Origin: Xanthobacter sp. NM-59
GTDB lineage: Bacteria; Pseudomonadota; Alphaproteobacteria; Rhizobiales; Xanthobacteraceae
Length of the DNA stretch: 64,000 nucleotides
Direction of reading: 5' to 3'
Assembly: GCF_021401125.1 (NCBI RefSeq)
Contig: NZ_JACBFQ010000008.1
Span: forward strand, 124,001-188,000
The translations under genes and the position numbers were made by a program. This document shows positions 8,273-28,361 of the stretch, in pieces; within the stretch, counting starts at the first letter, position 1; each line of letters opens with the position of its first letter. Below the pieces are notes generated by a model, which worked only from the letters and a program-made list of their open reading frames with translations, searched no databases and was not told the DNA's origin.

Positions 8273-8575
8273 CAATGAAACTCGATGAGCTCGCCACTTC
8301 AGAAATATAATTGTGGCGGAATCGCGCTTCCCCCGCGCCAGATTGCCGGGGAGACCTGATCAACATCGATAAAATTATCCGGTGCGCTTGGCGGCATGCG
8401 CGCGAGAGGCGCCATGGCCGGAGCGCAGGCACGGGCCGCGGGCGCCAGCGGTTGCCTCTTGGCGGCCTCTCAGGGGGCTCGCGCGGCGACGTAACGAAAA
8501 ATAAACAACTTGATCGCGCGTATTCACCATTGCACAATCATTACGGGTATCGGCCATGATCGGGTGTGCAGGAAC
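8273..8575. other. Divergent intergenic region with likely promoters
   Basis: About 300 bases between the response regulator and the peptidoglycan-binding protein gene. It is clearly more AT-rich in parts (TAATTGTGGCGG, GATAAAATTATCCGG, AACGAAAAATAAACAACTTG) than its surroundings, as expected of promoters. The segment GATAAAATTATC near 8368 is an imperfect inverted repeat and a possible binding site for the adjacent response regulator. No gene is seen. Confidence 0.35.
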
Positions 8576-10019: not shown

Positions 10020-11939
10020 ATGGTGAAGGCGAGCGGTCAGATCTCCGTTCTGGCCTCCACCGCGTTCGGGCCGCAGGAGGTCGCGCATTGCGACGGGCAG
10101 GCGGTTCTGGCGCAGTTCGGCCGCCTGTTCGACTATCTGGGCGACTATCGCGGCGGTGAGCTGGCGGGTTTCTTCGCCATTCCGGAAGTCCGGTTCAGCG
10201 CCGCGCGCAACCTCACCCTGGTGACCTGGTACACCGATCGCGGCGGCGCGTTCCGCCCGTTCGGCGAACTTTCCGAACACGAGCGCGCCGGCGCGCGCCA
10301 GATGCTGGCCGAACGCCTTCAAGCCCTCGCGGACGTCCCCGACCCGGCCATCCTGGCGCTGCTGCGGCTGGCGCTCAACGTGCCGGACGAGAATGATATT
10401 TTCTTCAATGGCGAGGATGTGGCCCTCACCCGCTGGGGTCATCTGAGCGGGGGCGAGGCCGGGGCGGCGCTGGCCCCCTTGCTGCCACCCGGTTTCCTCG
10501 AAACCCGTGCGCCGGAAGCCGCGCCCCCAACCGCCGACCAGCTCGACGGCACGCCCCCAGCCGCCGTCGCCATGGAGGCCCAGCCTTCCTCACCACAGGA
10601 AACCTTGCGTGTCGCGCAGGCCCCCCTTGGCGCGACTGCGTGCGAGGCGGCTGGCGCTTTCAGGGAGCCGGTGGTCGTCGCCGTCGACGAACGCCCGCGC
10701 TGGTGGTCGGGTCCCCTCGCCCCGATGCTGGCCTTCGTGATCTTCCTGGCGCTTTTCCTGGCGTACATTCTATGGCCGGGCAATCTCATCTATCCCGTCG
10801 CGGGAAGCCTGACGGCGGGGCAAGCTCAACCTGCCGCGGAGGCCGGCCTCACCGATGAGATCCGGCGGCTCCATGGCGCCCTCAGGGGCGATGTCTGCGC
10901 CATCCAGGACGTGCCGTCCGGCCTGGCGGGCGAGATCGCACCGTCGACGCCGCAGACGGGCACGCCGCCCCTCACACCCCCGCGTGCCGACACGCCCGCC
11001 CCCGCGCCCCGCGCCGGCTCCGCAATCCCTCCCGAGCAGCGCGCCCCGGCCGCCAACGGCGCGCCCGCGCCAGCGGCACCCGCGGCCCCGCGCACGGAGC
11101 GGAGCGGACCGCGCTCCGGCGTGGCGGACACTCCGAACCATCCGAATCCCGTCCCCGCCGGCGCCGCACCGCAGCCGCCCGCGAGCCCGGTGCCGCCGGG
11201 CACGTCGCTGGTGCAGCGGCTGGACCAGAGCACGGTTTTCCTCATCGGCAACACCGCCGACGGTGTCGCCATGGGCAGCGGCATCCTTTTGGGACCGCGT
11301 CACGTGCTCACCAATTTCCATGTGGTGGAGGGCATTTCCGGCCAGGTGATGGCCACCAACCAGCATCTGGCCGCCATCGTCCCCGCCCGGGTGGTGGCGC
11401 GTTCCGCCTCTTCCGACATCTCCACCCAGGATTTTGCCCTGCTGGAGCTGTCGCGGCCGGTGGAAGCGCCCGCGGTGGCCTTCAGCACCGCCGCCGAGCG
11501 GCTCGACGGCGTGGTGGCCGCGGGCTTCCCCTCATTCGTCATCTCCAGCGATCCGAGCTTCATCGCCGCCTTCCGCGACGGCGATGCGGAACGCATTTCG
11601 GATCTGCAGCTCGCCCTCACCCGGGGCGAGATCACCGCCAAGCAAGCCGGCGCCACCGGCACCACCCTCATCGCCCATTCCGCCACCATCTCACAGGGCA
11701 ATAGCGGCGGGCCGCTAGTGGATTCCTGCGGGCGCATCGTGGGCATCAACACCTTCGTGCGCACCGATGCGGAAAACTCGCTCCGGCTCAATTACGCCCT
11801 GAGCGCGACCGACGCCGTCGCCTTCCTCCGGCAGAACGGCTTCGAGCCACAGGTGGAGCCCACGCCCTGCGCGCCCGCCCCGGCCCTGCCGGCAACAGCC
11901 AATGGGGGCGGAGCGCAGCAAGGGAGCGGCCCGCAATGA
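10020..11939 (+). CDS. Membrane-anchored trypsin-like serine protease of the SrfBC cluster
   Basis: A 639-residue protein in three parts. Residues 1-145 form a cytosolic domain ending in a WGH triplet (139-141) that looks related to the N terminus of the next protein. A long Pro/Ala-rich linker surrounds one transmembrane helix (about 233-253). Residues 395-610 form a trypsin-like domain with His434 (LTNFHVVEG), Asp471 (STQDFALLEL) and Ser562 (SQGNSGGPLVDS), so the triad is complete and the protease faces the periplasm. ATG 10020 is preferred over the upstream in-frame starts, which only add Arg/Gly-rich residues. Its stop overlaps the next ATG (ATGA). It may process envelope proteins, or the exported parts of this system. 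Confidence 0.83.
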   Translation: MVKASGQISVLASTAFGPQEVAHCDGQAVLAQFGRLFDYLGDYRGGELAGFFAIPEVRFSAARNLTLVTWYTDRGGAFRPFGELSEHERAGARQMLAERLQALADVPDPAILALLRLALNVPDENDIFFNGEDVALTRWGHLSGGEAGAALAPLLPPGFLETRAPEAAPPTADQLDGTPPAAVAMEAQPSSPQETLRVAQAPLGATACEAAGAFREPVVVAVDERPRWWSGPLAPMLAFVIFLALFLAYILWPGNLIYPVAGSLTAGQAQPAAEAGLTDEIRRLHGALRGDVCAIQDVPSGLAGEIAPSTPQTGTPPLTPPRADTPAPAPRAGSAIPPEQRAPAANGAPAPAAPAAPRTERSGPRSGVADTPNHPNPVPAGAAPQPPASPVPPGTSLVQRLDQSTVFLIGNTADGVAMGSGILLGPRHVLTNFHVVEGISGQVMATNQHLAAIVPARVVARSASSDISTQDFALLELSRPVEAPAVAFSTAAERLDGVVAAGFPSFVISSDPSFIAAFRDGDAERISDLQLALTRGEITAKQAGATGTTLIAHSATISQGNSGGPLVDSCGRIVGINTFVRTDAENSLRLNYALSATDAVAFLRQNGFEPQVEPTPCAPAPALPATANGGGAQQGSGPQ

Positions 11940-13276
11940 GCACCTTCATCGTCTCGACGCCCCTCGCCCGCATGCAGCCGGTGGGGTCTGAGGGCGAACG
12001 CTCCCACGCGCGGCTGGCATCCCTGCTGAAGGCCCATCTCACGCCGGCGCACGCCGCCCTGTTCGCGGACCCGGTTCCGCTGCGCGACGGCAGCGGTATC
12101 GACTGGTATGTGGAGGAAGACGGCATCGCGCGGCCGCTGTCCTCGCTGCCCCCGGACCAGGCGCAGGCGGTGGGGGCGGAGGCGGAGCGCCTGCTGGCGG
12201 AAATCCGCGCCAAGGCGGACGAGATCGCGGGTCAGCCCGGCGGCCGCAGCGCCGCCGCCATCGCCCTGCGCAACGCCACGCTCCATCCCGACGCCGCGGA
12301 CCTCTTCGCACTTGATACCGCGGGGAAGCTGAAGCCCGTTTTGGTGGCGTGGGGGCACCAGGCGCACGAAAGCGATGTGCCCCCGGACTTCCACATGGCC
12401 GCGCCCGGCGCCGCGCCACAGACACCGCGGCCGAACACCCCCGCGGACGCGCCTTCCCCGCGACCCGAGCAGACACCTCAGACGCCGCCGGCGGACTCCT
12501 CCCGGCCGCAGGCCCGGAACGAGACGCCCCACGCCGCCGACGCGCAGACAGCCGCACCGCCGTCGAGCCGCACCGCCATTTTCACGCGGGTGGCCGGCGC
12601 CGGGCTCTGGAGTCGCGGCTTCCTCGCCTCGCTGCTGCTGTTGCTGGCGGCGCTGGTGCTGTTCGGGCTGATCGTCGGCTATCTGGTTCCGGCCTGCGGC
12701 CTGCGCACGCCGTTCGGCACCTTCGCCTTCGGCTTCTCCCCGGCCGGCGCCTGCGGCGGCCCGGTCGCGCGCCTCTCCCTCGATCGCGAGCTGGCGGTGC
12801 TGCGGGAGCAGGTGGCAACGCGCCGCCAGGCTTGCGCCGCGCCCGCCGCTTCGCCTCCTACCGCTCCACGTTCCCAGGATTTCGAGCAGCGCATCGACCG
12901 GCGCGGCCAGGTTCAGGTCACCCTGATCTGGGACGGGACCGACGATCTCGACCTGATGATCAAGTGCCCCAGGGGGCCGCTCATCCATTTCGCGCGCGGC
13001 GAGCGGCAGCACTGCGGGGGCTCGCTCGACGTGGACCGCAACGACACGCCCGACAACCTGACCACCCGCCCGGTGGAGAACATCACCTTCCAGAACGGCC
13101 TGAGCGAGGCCGGAACCTATCCGATCTACGTCAAGCTCTACCGCAAGCGCGAGCCGAACATGCCCGTTCCCTTCCGCCTGAGGGTGCGCGAGGGCGAGCA
13201 GATTCGCGAGATCGAAGGCCAGCTCACGGAACCCAACCAACTGCTGCCCGTCACGGAGCTGAAGCATGCCCGCTGA
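11936..13276 (+). CDS. Single-pass membrane protein with C-terminal DUF2135 (YfaP-like) domain
   Basis: A 446-residue protein built like its upstream neighbour. Its N-terminal cytosolic domain has WY at 57-58 and WGH at 139-141; a Pro-rich linker, a transmembrane helix (about 227-252) and an outer domain follow. The outer domain (about 324-440) matches DUF2135 in its landmarks: VTLIWDGTDDLDLMIKCPRG, CGGSLDVDRND, a VENITF strand and AGTYPIYVKLY. DUF2135 is a beta-sandwich often found beside vWA domains, and a vWA protein is encoded at 20197. In Salmonella the srfB and srfC genes are preceded by srfA; whether this protein is its counterpart cannot be decided by eye. Confidence 0.75.
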   Translation: MSTFIVSTPLARMQPVGSEGERSHARLASLLKAHLTPAHAALFADPVPLRDGSGIDWYVEEDGIARPLSSLPPDQAQAVGAEAERLLAEIRAKADEIAGQPGGRSAAAIALRNATLHPDAADLFALDTAGKLKPVLVAWGHQAHESDVPPDFHMAAPGAAPQTPRPNTPADAPSPRPEQTPQTPPADSSRPQARNETPHAADAQTAAPPSSRTAIFTRVAGAGLWSRGFLASLLLLLAALVLFGLIVGYLVPACGLRTPFGTFAFGFSPAGACGGPVARLSLDRELAVLREQVATRRQACAAPAASPPTAPRSQDFEQRIDRRGQVQVTLIWDGTDDLDLMIKCPRGPLIHFARGERQHCGGSLDVDRNDTPDNLTTRPVENITFQNGLSEAGTYPIYVKLYRKREPNMPVPFRLRVREGEQIREIEGQLTEPNQLLPVTELKHAR

Positions 13277-13300
13277 CACGGCCATGAAGAGGTCCACACT

Positions 13301-16300
13301 GTGCTCAACCGGACGATGAACGGGGTCGAAGCCCTCACCCTCATCCCGCAAAGCGGGATCCAGTTTGTCGAATATGGCTTCGACCTCCAGGGTTCGGGAC
13401 AATTCTCGCGCGCCTTCATCGAACGGCCGCAGCCGCCGGCCGCCGATGGGTCCATTGAAGCCACGCTCCTGCCCAACTGGAACGAATTCCAGCCCAGTGC
13501 GGAGCCGCCCATCGACGAACGCGATGGGGACGACGCCTATTCCCTCTCGAAGACCCGCGCCATCGAGGTTTTCCTCAACCGATGGGTGCCGGTTCCGTTC
13601 CTGAAGATCCAGCCGGGGCGGGACGCGCTCGGCAACGAGACCTATGCCAACGGGCCGGTGGACTGGGTGCGGGTGCGGGTGGTGGAAACCCGCAAGACCC
13701 ATGGCGACACCGAGTTCAGCCACCGCGCCGTGTTCGCCTTCGACACCACCTTGGTGAACGAGGTACCCGGCCGCCCCTATCTCGGCATCAGCCCCACAGA
13801 CGCGGTGCAGAGCGAGGCCTTCCGTTTCGTGCACCGCCCGCGCGACATCGCCGGCTTTCTCAAGAACGAAACCTTTCCGCAGGGGCCAGGCACGCCGGCC
13901 GTGGACAGCCAGGCCTGGCTCGTCGCCTGGCTGAAGGAGATCTTCCGCGACGCCCGCCAGCGGCAGTTTCCCCACCGCGACCTGCGGCCGGACGACTTTC
14001 CCCACGTGCTGGAGCACGTGGCCGCCTACATGACCTTCCTGGGCTATCTGGCCGAGGTGACACGCCCCGCGCGGGTGACGCTGGTGGACACGGTGAGCCG
14101 CGACCCACGGGTCGCGCCCATCGACGTGGACCTGGTGCTCGACGTCGGCAACAGCCGCACCTGCGGGCTGCTCATTCAGAGCTTTCCCAACGACCAGGGC
14201 GTCGATCTCAACCGCTCCCTGGTGCTGGAGCTGCGCGACCTCGGCAACCCCATCCTCGCCTATCGCGACCCGTTTGAGAGCAAGGTTGAGCTGGTGCACG
14301 CAGAGTTCGGCGCCGAGGATTTCGCCAAGCGCTCCGGCCGCAGCCGCGCCTTCTTCTGGCCGAGCCTGGTGCGGCTCGGCCCGGAGGCGGCACGCTATCG
14401 CAGCCAGTCGGAAGGCACCGAGGCCACCACCGGCCTGTCCTCCCCCAAGCGCTATCTGTGGGATGTGGACCCGGTGCCGCAGAGCTGGCAATTCCGCAAT
14501 GCCGAGGGACACGGACCGGACATCCATCCCCTCATCGAACGATCCATCTACCGCTATGTGAACAATCGCGGAGATGTTCTCGACCAGCTGGAAGACGACC
14601 GGAAGAACTACGGCCTGAACGTGCGCGCCGCCGATCGCGACAGTGCGGAGATGCTGCGCTTTTCCCGCTCGTCCTTCTTCACCTTCATGCTGGTGGAGAT
14701 CATCAGCCAGGCGCTGATGATGATCAACAATCCCGGCACCCGCCGCAAGGACCGGGAAAAGGACACGCCGCGCCGGCTGCGCTCCATCGTGATGACCATT
14801 CCTTCCGCCACCCCCGTGCAGGAGCAGCGCATCATCCGCTCGCGCACGGAGGCGGCCATCAAGCTGCTGTGGTCGCTGATGGGCTGGACCGCCGAGGTAC
14901 CCGGCGCCCCCAAGCCGCCGGTGCTGCACACCTTCTGGGACGAGGCCAGCTCGGTCCACCTCGTCTATCTCTATGGCGAGGTCACGCAGAAGCTCGGCGG
15001 CGACATCCAGCGCCTGTTCGAGGTGCTGGGGCGGGAGCGGCCACGGCTGGACCAGGACGGCAAGGTGATCTCCGAACGCCCCGAGAAAAGCCTTAGAATT
15101 GCCAGCGTGGATATTGGCGGCGGCACCACGGACGTCATGGTGACGACCTATCACCAGGTGGACAACCGCGCCCTCATCCCGGTGCAGAACTTCCGCGAGG
15201 GGTTCCGGCGCGCCGGCGACGACCTGGTGCGGCTGGTCATCGAGCGGCTGGTGATGTCCGCCATCGAGGTGCAGCTCACGGCCTGCGGCCTGGCTTATGC
15301 CCGCAGCCTCCTGCGCGACCGCTTCTCCGACGACAGCCCCGGCATGTCGGAGGCGGACAAGCACTTGCGCCGGCAGTTCGTGCAGGGCCTGCTGCGTCCG
15401 GTGGCCCTTGCCATCCTGGAGGCCGCGGAAAATGCCGCGGGCCCCGCGCAGGTGCCGGAAACGCGGCGCTTCGCCGATTTCTTTCCGCCGCTGGAACCGC
15501 TGCTTCAGCCCGGCAACCCGATCCTGGCGTATCTGGAAGCCGATGTGCGCCGGCGCGGGGCAGTGGGCTTCAGCCTCGCGGATGTGCCAGTCGCCCTCGA
15601 CTTCCAGGCGCTGGACGACTGCATCCGCGCCACTTTCGACACCATCTTCCGGAACATCGCCGACGCCATCTACAAGCTGGAAGCCGATGTGGTGCTGCTG
15701 ACCGGCCGCCCCTCCTGCCAGCCCGGCCTGGTGCGGCTGTTCCGTAACCACCACGCCGTCACGGTGGACCGGGTGGTGGCCATCGCCGACTACCGGGTGG
15801 GCAACTGGTATCCATTCCGGCGCGCGGCCCAGAGCGTCATCAGCGATCCCAAGACCACGGCGGTGGTGGGCGGCATGCTGCTGACCCTGGCCTCGAGCCA
15901 GCTCGTCAACTTCACGCTCTACACCTCCGGCATCGTCATGCGCTCCACCGCCCGTTTCATCGGCGAGATGGAGACCGATGGCATGATCAAAACGGAGAAG
16001 ATCTACTTCTCCGACATCGAGCTCGATGAAAAGCCCAGCGGCGAGGAAAGCTTCACCTTCACCTATCACTCGCCCCTTCGCATCGGCTACCGCCAGCTTG
16101 CGCGCGAAGACTGGGTGGCGGCCCCGCTCTACCGGCTGCGCATGATCCCCAGCGAGAGGATCAAGCTCGCCCCGCCCATCCAGGTGATCATCGCCCGCAA
16201 GCCGGCGGAGGTGGAGCCCGACGCCTCCGCCCTCGCCCTGCTGAAGAGCGAGGCCACCCGCGAGGAATTCATGATCGAGGAGGCGACCGACGCCCAGGAC

Positions 16301-16399
16301 CGATCCGTGACCGCCCTCATGGAGCTGAAGCTCGATACCTCGCCACCGGATACGGACGGGACCTACTGGCTCGATTCCGGCATCCTCAAGATCGCTTAG
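13301..16399 (+). CDS. srfB: SrfB-family protein (actin/Hsp70-fold ATPase-like)
   Basis: A 1032-residue protein recognised as the SrfB family. It carries the signatures of the actin-like ATPase fold: phosphate-1 motif LVLDVGNSRTCGLLI with Asp281, phosphate-2 motif VDIGGGTTDVMV near residue 604, and a late adenosine-type motif VVLLTGRPSC. The first 270 residues are an unrecognised N-terminal region. GTG 13301 is chosen because AAGAGG lies eight bases upstream; ATG 13316 is an alternative. SrfB was named as an SsrB-regulated factor in Salmonella and described as a virulence factor, but its biochemistry is not established. It sits 24 bases after the DUF2135 gene and just before srfC. Confidence 0.87.
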   Translation: MLNRTMNGVEALTLIPQSGIQFVEYGFDLQGSGQFSRAFIERPQPPAADGSIEATLLPNWNEFQPSAEPPIDERDGDDAYSLSKTRAIEVFLNRWVPVPFLKIQPGRDALGNETYANGPVDWVRVRVVETRKTHGDTEFSHRAVFAFDTTLVNEVPGRPYLGISPTDAVQSEAFRFVHRPRDIAGFLKNETFPQGPGTPAVDSQAWLVAWLKEIFRDARQRQFPHRDLRPDDFPHVLEHVAAYMTFLGYLAEVTRPARVTLVDTVSRDPRVAPIDVDLVLDVGNSRTCGLLIQSFPNDQGVDLNRSLVLELRDLGNPILAYRDPFESKVELVHAEFGAEDFAKRSGRSRAFFWPSLVRLGPEAARYRSQSEGTEATTGLSSPKRYLWDVDPVPQSWQFRNAEGHGPDIHPLIERSIYRYVNNRGDVLDQLEDDRKNYGLNVRAADRDSAEMLRFSRSSFFTFMLVEIISQALMMINNPGTRRKDREKDTPRRLRSIVMTIPSATPVQEQRIIRSRTEAAIKLLWSLMGWTAEVPGAPKPPVLHTFWDEASSVHLVYLYGEVTQKLGGDIQRLFEVLGRERPRLDQDGKVISERPEKSLRIASVDIGGGTTDVMVTTYHQVDNRALIPVQNFREGFRRAGDDLVRLVIERLVMSAIEVQLTACGLAYARSLLRDRFSDDSPGMSEADKHLRRQFVQGLLRPVALAILEAAENAAGPAQVPETRRFADFFPPLEPLLQPGNPILAYLEADVRRRGAVGFSLADVPVALDFQALDDCIRATFDTIFRNIADAIYKLEADVVLLTGRPSCQPGLVRLFRNHHAVTVDRVVAIADYRVGNWYPFRRAAQSVISDPKTTAVVGGMLLTLASSQLVNFTLYTSGIVMRSTARFIGEMETDGMIKTEKIYFSDIELDEKPSGEESFTFTYHSPLRIGYRQLAREDWVAAPLYRLRMIPSERIKLAPPIQVIIARKPAEVEPDASALALLKSEATREEFMIEEATDAQDRSVTALMELKLDTSPPDTDGTYWLDSGILKIA

Positions 16400-16407
16400 G
16401 TGTGGTG

Positions 16408-19137: not shown

Positions 19138-19138
19138 C

Positions 19139-20200
19139 GTGACGCGACGCCTGACCATCCGCGAAGACCAGAGCCTGCCCCCCGGCTGGGCGGCAATCAC
19201 CATCAGCGCGCCGCCGGCAGGCCTGGCGCCGCTTTTGTCCATCACCCGCCGCGGCTATGCGGACACGCCCCATCTCGGCCCGGCCGGCTGGCAGTCCGCC
19301 GAATGCCTCATTGAGGCGTCCCGTGTCCGCGCCATCGACGGTGCGCAGGAATGGCTGTTCGGGCCCCAGGTGACGCAGCATCTGTCCCTGGAAATGGACG
19401 TGCTGATCAAGGTGCCCGGCGCCGGCATCGAGGAACGGCACTTCTGGCCAGAGGTGAGCCATGGAGCCGCCGTCGCCATCGCCCCCCTCACGACCACGGG
19501 CGCGGGGCCGGCACCGGTCCCGCCGGCGCCCTTCGCAGCCAGGAGGGAAACGGCCGCCCCGGGCGAGGCTGCGCCCGCGAGCGGCCCCGTGGGCGCCCCC
19601 ATGGATGCCCCGGCGTCGCCGGAGCCCGAGGCATCCGCCCCCTCATTGGGGCCGGAGTCCGACCACGCGGCGGCGGTGCCCCATCCACGCGGGCAACGCG
19701 CCTGGTGGCGGAGCCGGCGCGGCATGCTGACATTGACGGGCCTCGCGGCGATCGTGGTGCTGTGCGTCCTGTTCGCCACGCAGATGCTCCCGCTGGCGGA
19801 CACCACCGCCACCGCCTCCTTCCAGGAGCGCTATGAGAGCTACAGCCGGCAGGGCGGCCACGCGGACGAGCTTTACACTCTCGCGCGCGAAGCCATGGGC
19901 ACGGGCGAAGACGAAATCGCGTTCAAGGCCCTCACCCTGTCCGCCGACAGGGGTGGGGCCGCGGCCGCCCTCCAGCTCGCCCGCTGGTACGATCCGAACG
20001 CAGCCGACCACGGCCGCCTGAGGCCCGACGCCGCCAGCGCCGCCATCTACTATCTGGAGCTGAGCCAGCGGGGCGACCCTGCGGCGCAGGACAGCCTGCG
20101 CGCCTTGTGCCGCGCCGCGTCCGATCCGGAGCGAAGCCGCGATGAGGCCTTCGCATCCTTTGATTTCGCCAGCTTCTGCACTCCGGAGGTTCGCCGATGA
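19139..20200 (+). CDS. Single-pass membrane protein with C-terminal Sel1/TPR-like repeats
   Basis: A 353-residue protein starting at GTG 19139, two bases after srfC; the frame is open into srfC but that part is a shadow. The N-terminal 105 residues form a beta-rich cytosolic domain (ITISAPPAGLAPLLSITRRG, EWLFGPQVTQHL). A Pro/Ala-rich linker follows, then a basic flank (RAWWRSRRG) and a transmembrane helix (LTLTGLAAIVVLCVLFATQM). The outer part contains Sel1-like helical repeats (EIAFKALTLSADRGGAAAAL, SAAIYYLELSQRGDPAAQDS). It is the third protein in the cluster with a cytosolic domain, linker, one helix and an outer module. The cytosolic domain could dock onto SrfC or SrfB. Confidence 0.72.
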   Translation: MTRRLTIREDQSLPPGWAAITISAPPAGLAPLLSITRRGYADTPHLGPAGWQSAECLIEASRVRAIDGAQEWLFGPQVTQHLSLEMDVLIKVPGAGIEERHFWPEVSHGAAVAIAPLTTTGAGPAPVPPAPFAARRETAAPGEAAPASGPVGAPMDAPASPEPEASAPSLGPESDHAAAVPHPRGQRAWWRSRRGMLTLTGLAAIVVLCVLFATQMLPLADTTATASFQERYESYSRQGGHADELYTLAREAMGTGEDEIAFKALTLSADRGGAAAALQLARWYDPNAADHGRLRPDAASAAIYYLELSQRGDPAAQDSLRALCRAASDPERSRDEAFASFDFASFCTPEVRR

Positions 20201-22143
20201 GCGCCATCCGCATTCGCGCATTTCCATCGGCCTTGGCCGGTCTCGTGATGGCCGTAGCGGCAGCTTTTGGAGGCGGGCCGGCTGCGCACGCGCGTGAGCC
20301 GCTTCCGGTTCCGGGAAAGACCTCGCTCTATCAGCGGGTTCTCACCCGCCCCGATACCCCGCTGACCACCGCGCCCGGCGCCGGCCGGCCGAGCGAGCTG
20401 CTGCCCGCCTTCAGCATCCTCTATGTCTATGGCCGCTTGAACGAGGCCGGCGCAGGCTATCTGGAGGTAGGCCGCACCCTGCAGGGGGGCAGCGAAGGCT
20501 GGATTCCCGCTGACAAGGCCATCGAATGGCGCCAGTCCATCGTCCTCGGCTTCAACAATCCGGCGGACGGGGCCCGCAGCCTCATCTTCAACACGTCCGA
20601 CGCGCTGGAGCAGACCTACGCCACGCCCGACATCGCCGCCCGCCTCGCCGAGCTGCGCCAGCAGGCGGACCAGCGCACACTTCCGCCGGGCAGTCCGGTC
20701 ATCTCCATCGCACCGTCGCGGTTCGTGGATATCACCCGCGAATTCTACATCCTGCCCATTCTGGAAGCGCGGCGGATCCGCCTTCCCGGCAACCCCGCCG
20801 CCAAGCTGCTGCGCATTGCCTCGGTGTCGGAGCGCGCGCAGGCGTCGCGGGCCGACATGGGCGCGGAGGACGCGCTGCGCGACTTCAAGATCGGCATCAC
20901 CTTCGTCATCGACACCACGCAGTCCATGCAGCCCTACATTGACGAGGTTCAGGCCGCCATCCGGCGGCTGCGTGATCGCATCGCCGGCAGCCCGCAGGCC
21001 GACCGCTTCCGGTTCGGCCTGGTGGCCTTTCGCGACAGCACGCGGATCGTGCCACAGCTCGATTACGTGACCCGCGTCTTCCTGCCGCTCAGTGAGACTT
21101 CCACCGCCGACCGCTTCCTGGACGCGATCCGGCAGGTCCAAGCGGCCCACGTCAGCAGCGACGGCTTCACGGAGGATTCCATCGGCGGCGTGGCCACCGC
21201 CATGGAGCAGATGAACTGGGCGCCGTTCGGCGGCCGCTACATCATCCTCATCACCGATGCCGGGCCGCGCCCGGCCGACGCGGACGCCCTGAAAGGCGCC
21301 CTCGCCCCCCGCGAGCTCCAGACCATGCTGGAGCGCCAGCACCAGCTCGCCCTGTTCACGCTGCACCTGAAGACGCCGCCCGGCCGGGCCGACCACGCCA
21401 GCGCGGAGAACGCCTATCGCCAGCTCTCCTTCTACGCCGAAACCCCGCTTTATTTTCCCATCGAGGGCGGCGAACAACAGGCCTTTGCCCGGCAGATCGA
21501 CGCCCTGGCCAACGAACTCGAACTCATGGTGAAGGGCGCCATGGACGGGCGCCTGCAACAGGCGCGCGCGGGCCGCGGCGCGGATATTTCCGGCACGGCG
21601 GGGCGGGTCGGCCTAGCCATGCAGCTCGCCTATCTCGGCAGCCGCACCTCCACGGCCGCCCCACCCGTGTTCGAGGGCTGGCTCACCGATCGTGACCCGG
21701 CGGACCGCATGGCGCTGCCGGTGACGCCCTATCTGCTGATGTCGAAGAATGAGCTGGCAGCCCTCCGCGACGTCATCAAGCGGGCCGTCGATATCGCCAC
21801 CGATCCCATGCGATCCAGTCGCGGCGACTTCTTTCGCCAGCTCCGCGAGTCCGTCGCCCTCGCGGCGCGGCGCCCCGAGGCGGTGCAGAGCGCCGGCACG
21901 CTCGGCGCCCTGCTCGGCGAATACTTGCAGGACCTTCCCTACAACAGCCAGGTGATCAATCTCACCATGGAAGACTTCCGCAACATGTCGCCGGAGCGGG
22001 AGCGCCAGTTGACCGACGCGCTGAAGTCCAAGCTCCGGGCGCTGGATGGCCTCCACCAGGACAGCACCCGCTGGCATGCGCTCGCGCCCGGGGCCCCTCC
22101 CGGCGAGAGCGTCACCATCGTGCCCATGACTTTGCTGCCATGA
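20197..22143 (+). CDS. Exported von Willebrand factor A domain protein
   Basis: A 648-residue protein with a signal peptide (LAGLVMAVAAAFGGGPAAHA). Residues 35-110 resemble an SH3-like module (LYQRVLTRPDTPLTTAPGAG, GWIPADKAIEW). The vWA domain begins near residue 233 with an intact MIDAS (ITFVIDTTQSM, Asp239-x-Thr-x-Ser243), a threonine loop (GFTEDSIGGVATAM) and ILITDAGPRP. The C-terminal 200 residues are helical and unassigned. The start overlaps the preceding stop (ATGA). With DUF2135 and the protease it would sit on the outer face of the membrane, where a metal-dependent vWA domain can bind protein partners. Whether it is released or lipid-anchored is not clear; no lipobox is seen. Confidence 0.83.
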   Translation: MSAIRIRAFPSALAGLVMAVAAAFGGGPAAHAREPLPVPGKTSLYQRVLTRPDTPLTTAPGAGRPSELLPAFSILYVYGRLNEAGAGYLEVGRTLQGGSEGWIPADKAIEWRQSIVLGFNNPADGARSLIFNTSDALEQTYATPDIAARLAELRQQADQRTLPPGSPVISIAPSRFVDITREFYILPILEARRIRLPGNPAAKLLRIASVSERAQASRADMGAEDALRDFKIGITFVIDTTQSMQPYIDEVQAAIRRLRDRIAGSPQADRFRFGLVAFRDSTRIVPQLDYVTRVFLPLSETSTADRFLDAIRQVQAAHVSSDGFTEDSIGGVATAMEQMNWAPFGGRYIILITDAGPRPADADALKGALAPRELQTMLERQHQLALFTLHLKTPPGRADHASAENAYRQLSFYAETPLYFPIEGGEQQAFARQIDALANELELMVKGAMDGRLQQARAGRGADISGTAGRVGLAMQLAYLGSRTSTAAPPVFEGWLTDRDPADRMALPVTPYLLMSKNELAALRDVIKRAVDIATDPMRSSRGDFFRQLRESVALAARRPEAVQSAGTLGALLGEYLQDLPYNSQVINLTMEDFRNMSPERERQLTDALKSKLRALDGLHQDSTRWHALAPGAPPGESVTIVPMTLLP

Positions 22144-22145
22144 CC

Positions 22146-22175
22146 CCGCTTGCCATCTCCCCGCTTGCCATCTCC
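22146..22175 (+). repeat. Perfect 15-bp tandem duplication
   Basis: Two perfect copies of CCGCTTGCCATCTCC lie side by side directly after the vWA stop codon, in the 54-base space before the ABC ATPase gene. A third, decayed copy (CTGCTGCCGTGAG) seems to follow, and the end of the vWA gene (TTGCTGCCATGA) is similar. It looks like recent replication slippage that lengthened the only gap in this stretch of otherwise overlapping genes. Confidence 0.8.
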
Positions 22176-22197
22176 CTGCTGCCGTGAGCGTCCCGCG

Positions 22198-23007
22198 ATG
22201 ACCGCCCCCTCTGCGCTCCTGCCAGCCTCCGCGCCGCTGCTCAGCGTGGAATGGGCGCGGCGCCGCCTGTCCGACCGCGAGCGCGCGACACATATCGTGC
22301 TCAGCGACATTCGCCTGGAGCCGGGTATCGCCTATGCGCTGTGCGGGCCCACCGGCATCGGCAAGACCACTGCGCTGGAAATGCTCTCCCTGGCGGCGCC
22401 CCCCCAGGGCGTCGAAACCGCGCGCATGCGGGTGCGCGACGGCGGCCGCGACATCGATGTTTCCGCACTGATCGCCGCCCGACGGCGGGCGGCCATCGCC
22501 GCCCTGCGCGGACGCCTGTTCGGCTACATCGCGCAGACCAGCCGCCTGCTGCCCTTCCTCACCGCGGCCGAGAACATCCGCGTGTCGCAGGACATCGCCG
22601 GGACCCGCGACAGCGAGGAGGTCGGCCGCCTCATGGAACGGCTGCAAATCTCCCGCCTCGCGAAAAGCTATCCGTCCAAGCTGTCGGGCGGACAACGCCA
22701 GCGGGTCTGCATCGCCCGCGCGCTGGCCCACCGGCCACCTCTGGTGTTTGCCGACGAACCCACCAGTGCCTTGGACGAAACCACGGCGGACACTGTCCTG
22801 CGCCTGCTCGTGGACTATGCGCGCGCGGCAGCGGCGGCGGTGCTCATCATCACCCATGACACCACCTACGTGGAGCGCTTCGGGCTGCGCCTGCTAAGGA
22901 TGGAGGGCTCCGGAACGGGCAGCACCTCGCGCACCCTCATCCGTGGCGCGGACGAAGAGCCGGGCCGGCTCCCCTCCCTGCCGCAGGCCCTGGAAGAGCA
23001 GCCATGA
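22198..23007 (+). CDS. ABC transporter ATPase (LolD/MacB type)
   Basis: A 269-residue nucleotide-binding protein; ATG 22198 is preferred over an in-frame start at 22150 that lies in the tandem repeat. Walker A is GPTGIGKT (50-57), the Q-loop is YIAQTSRLLPF, the signature is LSGGQRQRVCIARAL, Walker B is PLVFADEPTSALD and the switch histidine lies in ITHDTTYV. The closest group is the LolD/MacB/FtsE class, whose members drive periplasmic mechanics rather than simple membrane translocation. It is coupled by ATGA to an FtsX-type permease. No periplasmic acceptor such as LolA is encoded here. Confidence 0.93.
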   Translation: MTAPSALLPASAPLLSVEWARRRLSDRERATHIVLSDIRLEPGIAYALCGPTGIGKTTALEMLSLAAPPQGVETARMRVRDGGRDIDVSALIAARRRAAIAALRGRLFGYIAQTSRLLPFLTAAENIRVSQDIAGTRDSEEVGRLMERLQISRLAKSYPSKLSGGQRQRVCIARALAHRPPLVFADEPTSALDETTADTVLRLLVDYARAAAAAVLIITHDTTYVERFGLRLLRMEGSGTGSTSRTLIRGADEEPGRLPSLPQALEEQP

Positions 23008-24185
23008 TCCGCGCGCTCGCACTGGCCATCCGGGCCCTGCACCACTCGATCCTCACCAATGTCCTGGGCGCCGTCACCCTGGCGGCCGTCCTCACGCCCC
23101 TGCTGGTGCTCTATGGGCTGAAGCTGGGGGTGATCGAGGGCCTGCTCGACAAGCTGCGGGCCGACCCCTCCATTCTGGCGGTGAGCGTCAGCGGCTACCG
23201 GACGATCTCGGAAGCCGAGCTCGCCGCCATTCGCGCATGGCCGGAAACCGGCTTCGCCGCCGGCGCCCCGCGCAGCATCGTCGCCTCGGCCGAGATGCGC
23301 CCCTCGCCCCAGAGCCGGGAATATGTGGACGCCGACTGGCTGCCCTCAGCCGCGGGCGAGCCACTGCTGCCCGCCGGCGCCCCGCCCCTCGGCGACAACG
23401 ACATCGCCCTGTCCGAACCGCTCGCGGAGAAGCTCGGGGCCAAGGTGGGCGACATGGTCCAGGCCGCCATCTACCGCGACGGCAGCGCCCACGAGCTCAC
23501 CATGGACATGCGGGTGGCCGCGGTGCTGCCCCGGGCTGCGCTGGGCGGCAGCCGGGCGCTCGTCAGCGAGGGGCGGCTCGTCACCATGGCGCGCTTCTCG
23601 GATGGCCTGGACGAGGGCCAGGCGTCCGCAACCGCGCCACGCACCTTTGACAGCCTGCGCCTTTATGCGCGCGACCTCGACGCCGTCGCCCCCCTGGAGC
23701 GGCGCATCGCCCAGCGCGGCTTCCGGACCGGCAGCGCCGCCGAGAACATCGCCTGGGTGCGGAACCTCGAGGCCATCATGACCGGCATATTCGCCATCGT
23801 CTGCGTGGGCGGCATCGTGGGCTATCTCGTGTCCCTCTGGGCGATGATCCAGGCCACGGTGCGCCAGGCGCGCCCCTCCCTCGCCCTGCTGCGGCTGATG
23901 GGGATGCCGGGGCGCGCGCTGCTCGCCTTTCCTCTGGTGCAGGCGGTCGCGGTGACCGCCGCCGGGATCGCCGGCGCGCTGCTGCTCGCCGGCGCCGCCG
24001 CCTTCGCGCTGAACCATTTCTACCGCATCGAGGGCACCAGCGGCGACATCTGCCGCTTGGAGCCGGCATCGCTCGCGATCGTGGCCGCAGCCTCGCTCAT
24101 CACCGCGCTGCTGGTGGCGCTCACCCAGACCTTTCAGATCCGGTCGATCGTGCCCTCCGAGGCCCTGGCGGAGTCCCTCGCATGA
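23004..24185 (+). CDS. FtsX/MacB-type ABC permease
   Basis: A 393-residue permease with the four-helix MacB layout: one N-terminal helix (LTNVLGAVTLAAVLTPLLVL), a periplasmic domain of about 200 residues, then three C-terminal helices (IFAIVCVGGIVGYLVSLWAM, AVTAAGIAGALLLAGAAAF, LAIVAAASLITALLVALTQT). The segment VRQARPSLALLRLMGMPGRA between them is the usual coupling-helix region. It is joined to the ATPase upstream and the FGE-like gene downstream by ATGA overlaps. Such transporters extract lipoproteins or transmit force to periplasmic partners; in this cluster the PAN, FGE-like and vWA proteins are candidate clients. Confidence 0.9.
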   Translation: MIRALALAIRALHHSILTNVLGAVTLAAVLTPLLVLYGLKLGVIEGLLDKLRADPSILAVSVSGYRTISEAELAAIRAWPETGFAAGAPRSIVASAEMRPSPQSREYVDADWLPSAAGEPLLPAGAPPLGDNDIALSEPLAEKLGAKVGDMVQAAIYRDGSAHELTMDMRVAAVLPRAALGGSRALVSEGRLVTMARFSDGLDEGQASATAPRTFDSLRLYARDLDAVAPLERRIAQRGFRTGSAAENIAWVRNLEAIMTGIFAIVCVGGIVGYLVSLWAMIQATVRQARPSLALLRLMGMPGRALLAFPLVQAVAVTAAGIAGALLLAGAAAFALNHFYRIEGTSGDICRLEPASLAIVAAASLITALLVALTQTFQIRSIVPSEALAESLA

Positions 24186-25747
24186 CCTCATCCCGCCGCG
24201 CCACGCCGTGCCCACGGCATCGCCTGCCTATCGGCCCATGGGTCCTGCTCGCCCTCGGCCTCCTCGCAGCGCAGCCGGCGGCGGCGGACGATGGATGGAA
24301 CCCGAGGCCGGCGGCGGGCGACGTCATCTTCCCTCTGCCCTGCGACCAGAAGATCGTGTTCCGGCAGGTGGTGACCAGCGAAGGCGCGGGCGGGGCAAAC
24401 GATGTTCTGGCCGACACGCCCATCCGCCTCGGCTCCCCGGCCCGCGAGGCGGCCTATCTCAATTATCTGCGCAACGACTTCGTCGCCGGTAATTTCCAGC
24501 AGGGGCGCCGCCGCTTCTACCTCATCGGCAAGTATGAGGTGACACTGGCCCAGTACAAATCGCTCATGACCGAGGGCTGCGCCCGCGCGGCTGACGACGA
24601 CATCATGCCGGCCGCGCGAGTGAGTTGGTATGACGCGGAGAATTTCGCCCGGCGCCTCACCTCCCACCTCATCCGCAACGCCAAGGAGCAGCTGACCCGC
24701 GAGACCGGCACGCCGAAGGCCTTCGCACGGCTGCCCACGGAGACGGAATGGGAATTCGCGGCGCGGGGCGGCCTCGCGGTCTCGGTCGCCGATTTCCAGG
24801 CCGAGCGCTTCCCCATGCAGGGGCCACTCGTCAACTATGCCTGGGTCAACGACCCCATGAGCGCGACGAACGTCAACCCCATCGGCACCCGCGACCCCAA
24901 TCCCCTCAAGCTCTATGACATCTACGGCAATCTGGCGGAGATGATGTTCGAGCCGTTCCGGCTCAACCGGGCCGGACGGCTGCACGGCCTCGCCGGCGGC
25001 GTCATTCTCAAGGGTGGCTCGTTCCAGCACGACCCGGCCTTCGCCACCTCGTCCGGACGGGAGGAGGACACCCTGTTCGACCCCGAGAGCGGCGATGAGC
25101 GCCGCCTGCCCAACACCGGCTTCCGGCTCGTCCTGGCTGGCCCAGCCGTGCCCGCCCGGGCCAGCGACGCGCTGCAACGTGAATGGTTGCGACAGGGCGA
25201 AAGCCGGACCCCGGGCGGTGACGCGCCCCTCGCCATCATCGCCAAGGTGCGCGAATCCGTCTCCGACCTCCAGATGCTGAACGCACTCGCCTCGGTGGAG
25301 CGGGCGGTTCGCAGCCAGGCCGCCGGCGACCGCGAGCAGCAGAAGCAGCTGCTGGGCGCCCTCCTCACCAACCTCGGCGCCACCATTCAGGACATTCGCG
25401 AGCTGAAACGGCGGATCGACCACCGCGAGGGGCTGCGCCAGGACCTGCTGAGGCGCGGCAATACCAGCCAGGCAAAGGGGCTCGCCGACGAGAATGAAGA
25501 GGACGCGCACAGGATGTACGGCCTCGTGCCGTTCGCGGCCGACACCATCGTCCTGGCGGCCAACCTCTTCTTGCCGCAGACCATTACCGACCAGGCGCGG
25601 GCCACATCCGGCGCGCTGAAGCAGCGCGGCTTCGAGAGGATCGCAGACGCCACCCTGCTCGGCGGGTCCATCGCCGCGGACGTCGCACGCGGGAACCAGA
25701 CCTTCAGCCGCCAGGATTTGCTCAACCGGTTCGGGAGGGAGCCATGA
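24182..25747 (+). CDS. Exported SUMF1/FGE-sulfatase-domain protein
   Basis: A 521-residue protein with an N-terminal hydrophobic signal (VLLALGLLAAQPAAAD). Residues about 105-320 form a formylglycine-generating-enzyme-like domain: KYEVTLAQYKSLM, ARVSWYDAENFARRL, RLPTETEWEFAARGG, a changed core motif YGNLAEMM where the family usually has GNVWEW, then VILKGGSF and NTGFRLVLA. The copper-binding cysteine pair of true FGE is not seen, so a catalytic role is doubtful and a binding or carbohydrate/peptide recognition role is possible. The C-terminal 200 residues are helical with coiled-coil character (RTVRSQAAGDREQQK-like, DIRELKRRIDHREGLRQDLL). It overlaps both neighbours by ATGA. Confidence 0.83.
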   Translation: MTSSRRATPCPRHRLPIGPWVLLALGLLAAQPAAADDGWNPRPAAGDVIFPLPCDQKIVFRQVVTSEGAGGANDVLADTPIRLGSPAREAAYLNYLRNDFVAGNFQQGRRRFYLIGKYEVTLAQYKSLMTEGCARAADDDIMPAARVSWYDAENFARRLTSHLIRNAKEQLTRETGTPKAFARLPTETEWEFAARGGLAVSVADFQAERFPMQGPLVNYAWVNDPMSATNVNPIGTRDPNPLKLYDIYGNLAEMMFEPFRLNRAGRLHGLAGGVILKGGSFQHDPAFATSSGREEDTLFDPESGDERRLPNTGFRLVLAGPAVPARASDALQREWLRQGESRTPGGDAPLAIIAKVRESVSDLQMLNALASVERAVRSQAAGDREQQKQLLGALLTNLGATIQDIRELKRRIDHREGLRQDLLRRGNTSQAKGLADENEEDAHRMYGLVPFAADTIVLAANLFLPQTITDQARATSGALKQRGFERIADATLLGGSIAADVARGNQTFSRQDLLNRFGREP

Positions 25748-26601
25748 TGTCCCATCCCACCATACGGCTGCTGCTGGCGGCGCTGCTGCTCGCCACCATG
25801 GCCCTCCCCGCCGGGGCGCAGACCTGTTCCGCCGGAAACGAGAGCGCGTGGCGCGCGAAAGCCCTCGCCTCCAACGACCCGGCCGCGTGCGAACGCTATC
25901 TCGCCTGCTTCCAGCTGGAGGACGGCGCCGCTTCCGTGCGCCAGCGCTTGCAGGACTTGAAGAACGATCTCGCCTGCCGGCAGGCCCTGGCGGCCACCGA
26001 CGCCAACGTGCTGCAGGACTTCATCGTCCGCCACGGCGATCTGGCCTGCGCCCGGCAGGTGGCCGGGCGCCTGGAACAGCTGCGCGCCCGGCGCCAGTAC
26101 GTGCCCTATCCCAACATGATCCTCGCCGGGAGCCCGCTCTCACGCGGTGCGGCCGACAGCACCGACACCTGCCAGCTGCGATGCGATGCGACCCAGCGCT
26201 GTACGGCCTACTCTTTCGAGATCACCAACCGCGCCTGCACCCTCTGGTCCACTGCCACCACGCGGATGCCAAACGGCAAAGTGAATTCCGGAGCCCTCGC
26301 CGCCGTGCCCCTGCTGACAGCGCGCGTTGAAAAGCCGCGCGTTCAGAACGACACCCAACCCACGCCCGACCCTCCCATCTTTCGGCGGATCGACGTGGGG
26401 CTGGAATATACCAACGATACGGATCGCGGCGCCGACTACAGAACGCGGCCCAGCTCCCAGCAAGGCTGCATCGATGCCTGTGCGCGGGACCCGCGCTGCC
26501 GCATGTTCTCTTACTACAGGGGCCTCACCACTTGCGTTCTCAAAAGCCGGGCGCAGGGTGCGCGGCCGAGCCGGAACGTGGTCAGCGGCATCAAGCGCTG
26601 A
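25744..26601 (+). CDS. Exported protein with two PAN/Apple-like domains
   Basis: A 285-residue protein with a signal peptide (LLLAALLLATMALPAGAQ). The N-terminal part has cysteines spaced as in a small helical domain (ACERYLACFQLEDG, NDLACRQAL). Two PAN/Apple-type units follow: TDTCQLRCDATQRCTAYSFE with TNRACTLW, and GCIDACARDPRCRMFSYYRG with TTCVLKS. PAN domains bind proteins or carbohydrates and depend on disulphides, which agrees with export. It is the last gene of the cluster, overlapping the FGE-like gene by ATGA; ATG 25747 is the alternative start. Confidence 0.8.
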   Translation: MMSHPTIRLLLAALLLATMALPAGAQTCSAGNESAWRAKALASNDPAACERYLACFQLEDGAASVRQRLQDLKNDLACRQALAATDANVLQDFIVRHGDLACARQVAGRLEQLRARRQYVPYPNMILAGSPLSRGAADSTDTCQLRCDATQRCTAYSFEITNRACTLWSTATTRMPNGKVNSGALAAVPLLTARVEKPRVQNDTQPTPDPPIFRRIDVGLEYTNDTDRGADYRTRPSSQQGCIDACARDPRCRMFSYYRGLTTCVLKSRAQGARPSRNVVSGIKR

Positions 26602-28133: not shown

Positions 28134-28180
28134 GACCGCCTCCCTGACATCACCACCCGCCCGCCGTCTTGTTTTCTGAG

Positions 28181-28190
28181 CGAGCGCTCG
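28181..28190. promoter_or_regulatory. 10-bp palindrome, possible TetR-type operator
   Basis: CGAGCGCTCG is a perfect palindrome 47 bases upstream of the SDR start, flanked by AG and a T-run (minus-strand AAAACGAGCGCTCGCTCAG). Operators of this GAGCGCTC type are common for TetR-family repressors of fatty-acid genes. No repressor gene is adjacent. Confidence 0.4.
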
Positions 28191-28346
28191 TTTTTTTAAT
28201 CGAGGTGGCGGGCCGCGACAAGCTTTCGGCGCGCCCCGGGCTGCCAGCTGGCGGCGCGAGTGTGGCCATGGACATATCCCCATGCCGCGCGCGCTTCTTC
28301 TTCGCGCGCCATGAGCAATCCGCCGACGTTCAAGCTTTCGCGAATT

Positions 28347-28361
28347 TTGTGCTACGCACAA
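28347..28361. promoter_or_regulatory. Inverted repeat upstream of fabI
   Basis: TTGTGC-TAC-GCACAA is a perfect 6+3+6 inverted repeat in an AT-rich stretch 97 bases before the fabI start. It is placed where a promoter for fabI would lie. The regulator is not identifiable. Confidence 0.4.

What the first reader, a model, noticed from the sequence alone, without database searches (positions are those of the whole stretch)
10020..26601. Ten-gene SrfB/SrfC cluster with protease, DUF2135, vWA, LolDE-like transporter, FGE-like and PAN proteins
Seen: ten same-strand genes, seven of nine junctions overlapping or within a few bases, the others 24 and 54 bases. Known: SrfB and SrfC were named in Salmonella as SsrB-regulated virulence factors, and SrfB has an actin/Hsp70-type fold. 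Inference: cytosolic NTPases (SrfB, SrfC) are linked by three single-pass adaptors to an outer apparatus of protease, DUF2135, vWA, FGE-like and PAN modules, powered or supplied by a MacB/LolCDE-type transporter. No described function covers this combination, and it is in a probably free-living alphaproteobacterium, so a role in envelope conflict, surface assembly or signalling rather than animal virulence seems likely.
Basis: partly seen in the sequence, partly recalled or inferred. Interest (0 to 1): 0.88.

Follow-up and report, generated by a model that had tools for sequence, protein, structure and literature searches.

The report
Envelope-damage sensor wired to SrfBC machine
Ten adjacent bacterial genes appear to form one machine in which a sensor of cell-envelope damage, otherwise known for triggering a bacterial harpoon weapon, is wired instead to an Hsp70-like and a dynamin-like protein that probably reshape the membrane.

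Summary
The ten-gene run is real: same strand, five junctions overlap by 4 bases, two are 1-2 bases apart, the others 24 and 54. Nine genes recur elsewhere in this order: of 58 related loci with enough downstream DNA, 37 carry vWA, ABC, permease and FGE genes after SrfB-SrfC. The tenth gene (PAN) is not conserved.

Genes 6-9 look like a sensor, not a MacB/LolCDE supply system. Gene 6 matches the part of PpkA-type proteins behind the kinase, and genes 6-9 keep the order PpkA-TagT-TagS-TagR, the damage-sensing cassette of type VI secretion. Two kinase queries found no kinase in any Srf locus searched. Gene 5 fills that slot: its membrane and C-terminal part matches that of type VI kinases in two genomes; its cytosolic part differs. 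The same cassette also sits beside a tubulin-like protein. SrfC models as dynamin/mitofusin-like, SrfB as Hsp70-like.

Most likely: envelope damage drives an Hsp70-dynamin membrane-remodelling machine. Parts are shown, function is inferred. srfABC beside tagQRST and 'ppkA' is already in print for host-associated Deltaproteobacteria.

The parts
8510..9703 (+). Candidate eleventh part (uncertain): secreted, glycine-rich, peptidoglycan-binding protein upstream
   Evidence: PG_binding_1 E 3.5e-15. Weak relatives lie just after the FGE gene, where TagQ usually sits, in L044, L047, L049, L061 (E 5e-10 to 6e-6), and upstream in L067. Glycine-rich stretch and signal peptide by eye. 316 bases from gene 1.
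10020..11939 (+). Gene 1: SrfA-like N-half, one TM (233-251), trypsin-like protease domain
   Evidence: Trypsin_2 E 4e-19; SrfA_fam E 5e-10, below its cut-off; motifs TNFHVVEG, DFALLEL, GNSGGPL present at 431, 471, 560, read as the triad from recall; TM.
11936..13276 (+). Gene 2: SrfA-like N-half, one TM (229-247), C-terminal domain (reader: DUF2135-like, not confirmed)
   Evidence: SrfA_fam E 8e-13, 48.6 bits vs cut-off 150; its family profile aligns to an annotated SrfA over about 240 residues, E 3e-43; TM.
13301..16399 (+). Gene 3: SrfB, Hsp70-like ATPase
16402..19137 (+). Gene 4: SrfC, dynamin/mitofusin-like GTPase
19139..20200 (+). Gene 5: probable transducer: variable cytosolic part, one TM (195-213), Sel1-like C-terminal part (by eye)
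   Evidence: Profile positions 131-323 and 151-323 match the TM plus C-terminal part of kinases in L158/L155 (E 4e-22, 3e-21); weaker match to single-pass proteins of the tubulin loci (E 1e-13, 7e-6). No Pfam family.
20197..22143 (+). Gene 6: secreted vWA protein, like the periplasmic region of PpkA without kinase
   Evidence: VWA_2 E 4e-7; its 641-position profile matches PpkA-type ORFs from position 24-29 to 641, E <= 8.2e-188; kinase domain in two of those ORFs by Pfam; signal peptide by eye.
22198..23007 (+). Gene 7: ABC ATPase, TagT counterpart (ORF opens at 22150)
   Evidence: ABC_tran E 2.6e-23; same place in T6SS cassettes.
23004..24185 (+). Gene 8: FtsX/LolE-type permease, TagS counterpart
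   Evidence: FtsX E 1e-4, below cut-off; four TM; profile relatives in the same place in T6SS cassettes.
24182..25747 (+). Gene 9: FGE-fold secreted protein, TagR counterpart, probably not an enzyme
   Evidence: FGE-sulfatase E 2.3e-26; only Cys54 and Cys133 conserved, 14 of 14; same place in T6SS cassettes.
25744..26601 (+). Gene 10: secreted PAN protein in the TagQ slot; lineage-specific
   Evidence: PAN_1 E 3e-16; no TagQ match in the window; PAN genes also in Srf loci L027, L029, L198.

Best explanation
This is an SrfABC machine joined to the envelope-damage sensor of the type VI 'tit-for-tat' pathway. In the envelope, the ABC pair (genes 7, 8), the FGE-fold protein (9) and the vWA protein (6), with PAN or the upstream peptidoglycan-binding protein perhaps replacing the usual outer-membrane lipoprotein TagQ, detect damage. 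In type VI systems this cassette switches on the PpkA kinase. Here there is no kinase: gene 5, with a related membrane and C-terminal part but another cytosolic head, passes the signal to SrfB and SrfC. SrfB (Hsp70-like ATPase) would load or release SrfC (dynamin/mitofusin-like GTPase) at the inner membrane, where the SrfA-type single-pass proteins (genes 1, 2) anchor it and carry periplasmic tools, one a protease. The likely output is local membrane remodelling or resealing at the damaged site. Shown: the genes, their order and recurrence, cassette homology, no kinase found, the differing head of gene 5, both folds (predicted models). Inferred: damage as signal, SrfB acting on SrfC, repair as outcome.
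For: Recurrence: genes 6-9 downstream in 37 of 58 loci with room, order. Class survey of 289 genomes: SrfB and gene 6 profile both in 13, SrfB only 2, gene 6 only 4, neither 270; Fisher p 2e-17, relatedness not corrected. Cassette identity: gene 6 profile hits ORFs of 1017-1189 residues in four genomes in which one search found no SrfB; in G544 the order is IcmF-TagF-phosphatase-kinase/vWA-ABC-permease-FGE-TagQ. TagQ relatives lie within about 2 kb of the FGE gene in 16 of 25 Srf-linked loci with >=750 bases of room. Differing head of gene 5. Tubulin-like partner in two loci. No kinase hit in Srf loci. 5 of 14 tested genomes with SrfB plus gene 6 have no TssC. Folds. Published: outer-membrane damage is sensed through TagQRST-PpkA (PMC11881912, passages); SrfA, SrfB and SrfC form a complex (PMC6950479, abstract). 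Pairwise distances of SrfB and SrfC correlate at r 0.96, SrfB with genes 6, 7, 8, 9 at 0.82-0.86, over 36 chosen loci, not corrected for the species tree.
Against: 20 of 58 loci (15 of them Reyranella-like, 11 so titled) have SrfBC without the cassette, and 7 of 13 SrfB-positive genomes in the phylum draw lack gene 6, so the sensor is not obligatory. Nor are SrfA-type genes: 7 of 55 loci have none upstream, four of them (L070, L072, L075, L102) with the cassette. The window has no TagQ. SrfC's G4 lysine is Trp here. One review passage (PMC6543913) says polymyxin B acting through RcsF represses srfABC, while PmrAB activates it. Printed assays describe SrfABC as cytotoxic to animal cells. G041 and G339 carry the cassette with neither SrfB nor TssC. 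The kinase search used only two queries and the flanks held.
Confidence: 0.5

Rival explanations
1. The cassette regulates a type VI system encoded elsewhere; SrfABC only sits beside it or is a T6SS client.
For: The window's genome has one TssC, on another contig, and just one copy of gene 6. 9 of 14 tested genomes with SrfB and gene 6 have TssC. The 2013 paper suggested PpkA might trigger SrfC export.
Against: 5 of 14 such genomes have no TssC. No kinase hit in the Srf loci. Type VI loci have their own cassette beside IcmF-TagF-phosphatase (Pfam on two loci); G073 carries two, one with a kinase gene 22 kb from TssC and one beside a tubulin-like gene.
Confidence: 0.15
2. SrfABC is a secreted toxin or effector complex, released when the cassette senses a neighbour or host.
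For: Cytotoxicity of expressed SrfABC to insect and mammalian cells (PMC6950479, part 1 of 4 read).
Against: SrfB and SrfC have Hsp70-like and dynamin-like folds and no N-terminal hydrophobic segment; SrfA-type proteins have a TM segment. The reported cytotoxicity used lysates, added proteins and expression inside cells. Named carriers include many environmental genera.
Confidence: 0.12
3. The ABC pair is a MacB/LolCDE-like transporter that moves lipoproteins or substrates to an outer apparatus.
For: ATPase and permease are of the LolD/FtsE/MacB superfamily.
Against: Profile relatives with the same order and partners lie in type VI signalling cassettes. I saw no conserved cargo gene, but did not search for one specifically.
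Confidence: 0.1
4. An anti-phage or anti-predator defence island in which the protease and dynamin act when the envelope is breached.
For: Sporadic distribution (SrfB in 2 of 14 genomes of its own genus) and many plasmid copies (142 plasmid records with SrfB).
Against: PADLOC gives only generic protease and ABC hits. Overlaps with the best explanation.
Confidence: 0.1

Closest known systems
TagQRST-PpkA threonine phosphorylation pathway of type VI secretion
   Same: Gene order vWA region-ABC-permease-FGE(-TagQ); match of gene 6 to the part of PpkA-type ORFs behind the kinase.
   Different: No kinase, phosphatase, TagF or T6SS genes beside it; the transducer has another cytosolic part; no TagQ in the window.
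srfABC-tagQRST-'ppkA' neighbourhood of host-associated Deltaproteobacteria (PMC3608642)
   Same: Same two halves together in a 10-gene neighbourhood, in all but one without T6SS machinery.
   Different: Those authors read one gene as the PpkA kinase and the set as host-associated. Here no kinase is found, two SrfA-type genes carry a protease and another domain, and named carriers include many environmental genera. Their genomes were not examined here.
srfABC operon alone (enterobacterial type; recalled for Salmonella)
   Same: One SrfA-like gene, SrfB, SrfC (L131, L132, L164, L165).
   Different: No gene 5 or cassette seen in those four loci, and no gene 6 in their genomes or in G507 and G564.
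FtsZl1/vWA/GTPase membrane-remodelling system (Makarova and Koonin 2010, PMC2875224, parts 1-2 of 5 read)
   Same: Cytoskeleton-type NTPase plus GTPase plus vWA protein plus membrane proteins; a tubulin-like gene carries this very cassette in L156/L157.
   Different: The window uses an Hsp70-like SrfB and its genome has no Tubulin_2 match. That FtsZl1 equals Pfam Tubulin_2 is my inference.
Bacterial dynamins and IniA (by fold)
   Same: Predicted fold of SrfC.
   Different: Different partners; membrane activity untested.

Membership tests
SrfB (PF07520) | Pfam match above cut-off | tested here: met
   850.7 bits, cut-off 27.1, full length.
SrfC (PF10139) | Pfam match above cut-off | tested here: met
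   752.7 bits, cut-off 28.1, full length.
SrfA family (NF040486) | Match above curated cut-off of 150 bits | tested here: not met
   39.3 and 48.6 bits for genes 1 and 2; their family profiles still align to an annotated SrfA, E 3e-40 and 3e-43.
PpkA / TPP pathway | Ser/Thr kinase domain joined to or beside the vWA protein | tested here: not met
   Two kinase queries hit only T6SS loci; Pfam finds no kinase in the ten genes.
PpkA / TPP pathway | vWA region with TagT, TagS, TagR in that order | tested here: met
   against window genes 6-9; the Tag names rest on order and literature.
PpkA / TPP pathway | TagQ lipoprotein | tested here: not met
   No match in the window; present in 24 of 35 related loci with room.
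Type VI secretion system | T6SS core genes in the locus | tested here: not met
   No T6SS Pfam family among the ten genes and ten flanking ORFs; TssC lies on another contig.
Dynamin superfamily (SrfC) | Dynamin-type fold | tested here: met
Dynamin superfamily (SrfC) | Intact G1, G3, G4 motifs (motifs recalled) | tested here: inconclusive
   G1 and G3 kept; G4 TKxD is TWFD in the window; Lys in 8 of the 14 sequences printed, of 30.
Hsp70/actin ATPase (SrfB) | Hsp70-type nucleotide-binding fold | tested here: met
Formylglycine-generating enzyme (gene 9) | Conserved catalytic cysteines in the C-terminal half (recalled) | tested here: not met
   Only Cys54 and Cys133 conserved, 14 of 14.
DUF2135 (gene 2) | Pfam match | tested here: not met
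   No Pfam family at E<=0.01.
FtsZl1/Tubulin_2 system | Tubulin-like gene | tested here: not met
   No PF13809 match in G000.
SrfABC machine as damage responder | Activation by envelope damage | not testable with these tools
   Needs experiment.

The most novel reading that the evidence does not exclude
The TagQRST-vWA cassette is a general plug-in damage sensor of Gram-negative bacteria. By changing the cytosolic head of one single-pass protein it drives at least three machines: the type VI harpoon (kinase head), an Hsp70-dynamin membrane-resealing machine (SrfB/SrfC) and a tubulin-like one (cysteine-rich head). SrfABC, long filed as a virulence factor, would be an envelope-repair machine.
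Probability: 0.38. Interest if true: 0.87.

Novelty: new variant of a known kind. Interest (0 to 1): 0.74.

Why it matters
SrfB and SrfC are annotated as virulence factors, and the paper seen calls their function unclear. Linking them to a studied damage sensor gives a testable input, and two predicted folds (Hsp70-like, dynamin-like) give a testable output. It would also make the 'tit-for-tat' sensor a reusable module rather than a type VI accessory, and the different heads offer a natural way to find out how the signal crosses the membrane. Clusters of this kind also sit on plasmids: SrfB is in 142 plasmid records, 114 from Klebsiella.

Tried and rejected
PAN as a core part: rejected; PAN-profile hits in only 2 of 106 loci, plus L198. 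MacB/LolCDE supply: see rivals. Direct sequence link to solved structures: none for SrfB or gene 6, two chance-level hits for SrfC. SrfB against an HSP70 profile: 11% probability, E 0.0027 over 761-862; SrfC as control 0.07%; the fold comparison was clearer. PADLOC: generic hits only. Promoter and terminator scan: no promoter-like site, four terminator-like against a shuffled mean of 7.5; uninformative. Folds not listed for SrfC or SrfB are not excluded. A structure of gene 5 was wanted, but the second prediction went to SrfB. Kinase, phosphatase or TagF beside the window genome's own T6SS: in a 20-kb stretch only an ORF matching TssM was hit, near the contig end, so undecided.

ORFs were called mechanically, with over-long starts in some. 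Loci with too little flank were dropped before counts: 22 of 80 for the cassette, 13 for SrfC, 17 for gene 5, 25 for upstream genes. One search tests presence on the strand, not order; order is read. The tree warns of long branches. G076 and G111 were left out of the TssC test. L119-L121 and L155 were not run against Pfam apart from the L119 kinase ORF.
Full report
OBSERVATION. The ten genes stand as described. Five junctions overlap by 4 bases, SrfB/SrfC and SrfC/gene 5 lie 2 and 1 bases apart, 24 bases precede SrfB, and 54 precede gene 7 if it starts at ATG 22198. The run ends before a short-chain dehydrogenase on the other strand (27372-28361). Upstream on the same strand lies a peptidoglycan-binding protein (8510-9703), and beyond it a two-component pair on the minus strand.

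RECURRENCE. Iterated profiles from each window gene were run over these and 26 earlier loci; counts were made on the 80: SrfC next to SrfB in 67 of 67 with room; gene 5 in 62 of 63; both a gene 1-like and a gene 2-like ORF upstream in 45 of 55, one of them in 3, neither in 7; genes 6-9 downstream in 37 of 58, genes 6-8 only in one, none in 20. Loci with the cassette include Rhodobacterales, Azospirillum, Roseomonas-type, Cohaesibacter and Devosia. In the window's own genus 2 of 14 genomes have SrfB; the other, G007, shows no cassette in the 20 kb held (L129). Independently annotated plasmids agree: Cereibacter azotoformans pORIO1 has serine protease-hypothetical-SrfB-SrfC-hypothetical-vWA-ABC-permease-SUMF1, and a Klebsiella pneumoniae plasmid has a glycine-zipper protein, two further genes, then SrfA-SrfB-SrfC-hypothetical-vWA-ABC-permease-SUMF1. 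Over the plasmid collection gene 6 finds 125 records and SrfB 142, 114 of each from Klebsiella.

WHAT GENES 6-9 ARE. A profile of gene 6 (14 sequences, 641 positions) run over 298 genomes of the phylum hit 11. Six also have SrfB. Four others (G377, G441, G544, G591) carry the match, from position 24-29 to 641, inside ORFs of 1017-1189 residues. In G544 (L118) the locus reads IcmF/TssM, TagF, PP2C phosphatase, Ser/Thr kinase fused to the gene 6 region, then ABC ATPase, permease, FGE protein, then a TagQ-like lipoprotein (lipobox by eye). The names TagT, TagS, TagR, TagQ and PpkA are put on by this order and the literature; that TagR is an FGE-fold protein and the Pseudomonas aeruginosa gene order are recalled. 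In G300 of the window's class (L158, Pfam) the order is IcmF-TagF-phosphatase, then the kinase as a separate single-pass protein, then genes 6-9; G073 (L155) has the same kinase type by phmmer. TagQ relatives lie within about 2 kb of gene 9 in 24 of 35 loci with at least 750 bases of room: 16 of 25 Srf-linked ones (two of them, L125 and L163, on contigs without SrfB; in L077 and L102 on the opposite strand), 4 of 6 T6SS ones, both tubulin ones and both orphans. The window has none; there the PAN gene overlaps the end of gene 9 in that slot.

THE DIFFERING HEAD. Gene 5's profile matches the kinases of G300 and G073 only over its TM and C-terminal part (positions 131-323 and 151-323, E 4e-22 and 3e-21), and likewise the single-pass proteins before gene 6 in the tubulin loci of G073 and G202 (E 1e-13 and 7e-6); those begin with a cysteine-rich, zinc-ribbon-like stretch (by eye). 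In these two loci the gene before is Tubulin_2 (E 2e-56 and 5e-57). Two kinase queries (from L118 and L158) hit only T6SS loci of six genomes, none of the Srf loci, and none of four named plasmid loci. So the envelope half stays and the cytosolic part changes with the partner. A tree of 64 gene 6 sequences keeps the two T6SS groups apart, which suggests more than one exchange, with long-branch warnings. G041 has the cassette with a gene 5-like protein but neither SrfB nor TssC; G339 has a distant cassette with neither: unexplained.

ASSOCIATION TEST. Of 289 genomes drawn from the class, SrfB is in 15 and gene 6 in 17, both in 13; Fisher p 2e-17, not corrected for relatedness. In G271 and G111 the best gene 6 match lies on another contig than SrfB, and in G076 gene 6 is cut by a contig end. 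In the phylum draw SrfB passes its cut-off in 13 of 299, with gene 6 in 6 of them; the other seven are six genomes of one family (f198, probably enterobacterial) and a Reyranella-type. TssC is present in 9 of 14 tested genomes that have SrfB and gene 6, and not found in 5, so the cassette does not exist only to run a distant T6SS. The window's genome does have a TssC on another contig and a single gene 6.

MECHANISM. In P. aeruginosa, AFM indentation or polymyxin B nonapeptide triggers H1-T6SS, and strains without tagQ or ppkA do not respond (PMC11881912, passages); a review places TagQRST as sensors of membrane damage that act on PpkA (PMC10482370, passages). SrfA, SrfB and SrfC co-precipitate (PMC6950479, abstract). 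Putting these together: damage is sensed by genes 6-9, passed across the membrane by gene 5, and answered by SrfB and SrfC, held at the membrane by the SrfA-type proteins. An Hsp70-like ATPase that loads and unloads a dynamin-like GTPase at the inner membrane is my inference, by analogy with Hsp70 action on protein coats and with bacterial dynamins (recalled). Resealing or reshaping is the likeliest result; the periplasmic protease may trim damaged or signalling proteins. Contrary evidence: many SrfBC loci have no cassette, some cassette loci have no SrfA-type gene upstream, and one review passage has srfABC repressed through RcsF on polymyxin B.

PRIOR WORK. PMC3608642 (passages) reported srfB, srfC, tagQ, 'ppkA' and in most genomes tagRST together in host-associated Deltaproteobacteria, only one of which has T6SS machinery genes. 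Xenorhabdus workers noted T6SS control genes near srfABC. Makarova and Koonin (PMC2875224, parts 1-2 of 5) proposed a membrane-remodelling system of a tubulin-like protein, a vWA protein, a GTPase and OmpA proteins. I found no paper that states the absent kinase, the differing head, the dynamin and Hsp70 folds, or the tubulin variant of the cassette; the searches were made, in open-licence PMC papers only, mostly seen as listings. Hence 'new variant of a known kind'.

Noticed in passing
L156 6121-17398; L157 5562-17423: A Tubulin_2 protein, a cysteine-rich single-pass protein and the complete vWA-ABC-permease-FGE-TagQ cassette stand together; G073 also has a second cassette with a kinase gene (L155).
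   Followed up: partly
L198 (Mesorhizobium japonicum pMLa) 16875-22046; L029 16869-23119: SrfBC loci without the cassette carry several PAN genes and a glycoside hydrolase family 3 gene downstream instead: perhaps an alternative outer module.
   Followed up: no
L129 1564-11812 (G007, same genus as the window): Srf locus with three gene 5-like proteins in a row followed by a 1534-residue autotransporter.
   Followed up: no
L196 7959-10452: On the Klebsiella plasmid the TagQ-like gene lies upstream of SrfA, with a gene annotated 'tellurite resistance domain protein' that weakly matches the gene 1 and gene 2 profiles.
   Followed up: no
L154 5772-17211; L200 7418-13672: Cassettes without SrfB lie near a P-type ATPase (G041, also a Usp gene; Thiodictyon plasmid, where only the vWA and ABC genes are annotated).
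   Followed up: no
L046 4725-5852 and 5849-6589; L044 6659-7372; L064 6166-6927: Some loci have an extra protein upstream of gene 1 that matches the TM and following part of gene 2; one carries a vWA domain.
   Followed up: no
window 6243-8275 (-): Histidine kinase and response regulator pair upstream, opposite strand; could be a regulator.
   Followed up: no
PMC5683332: The paper reads srfABC of Erwinia as surfactin synthesis genes, apparently a name confusion (passages).
   Followed up: no
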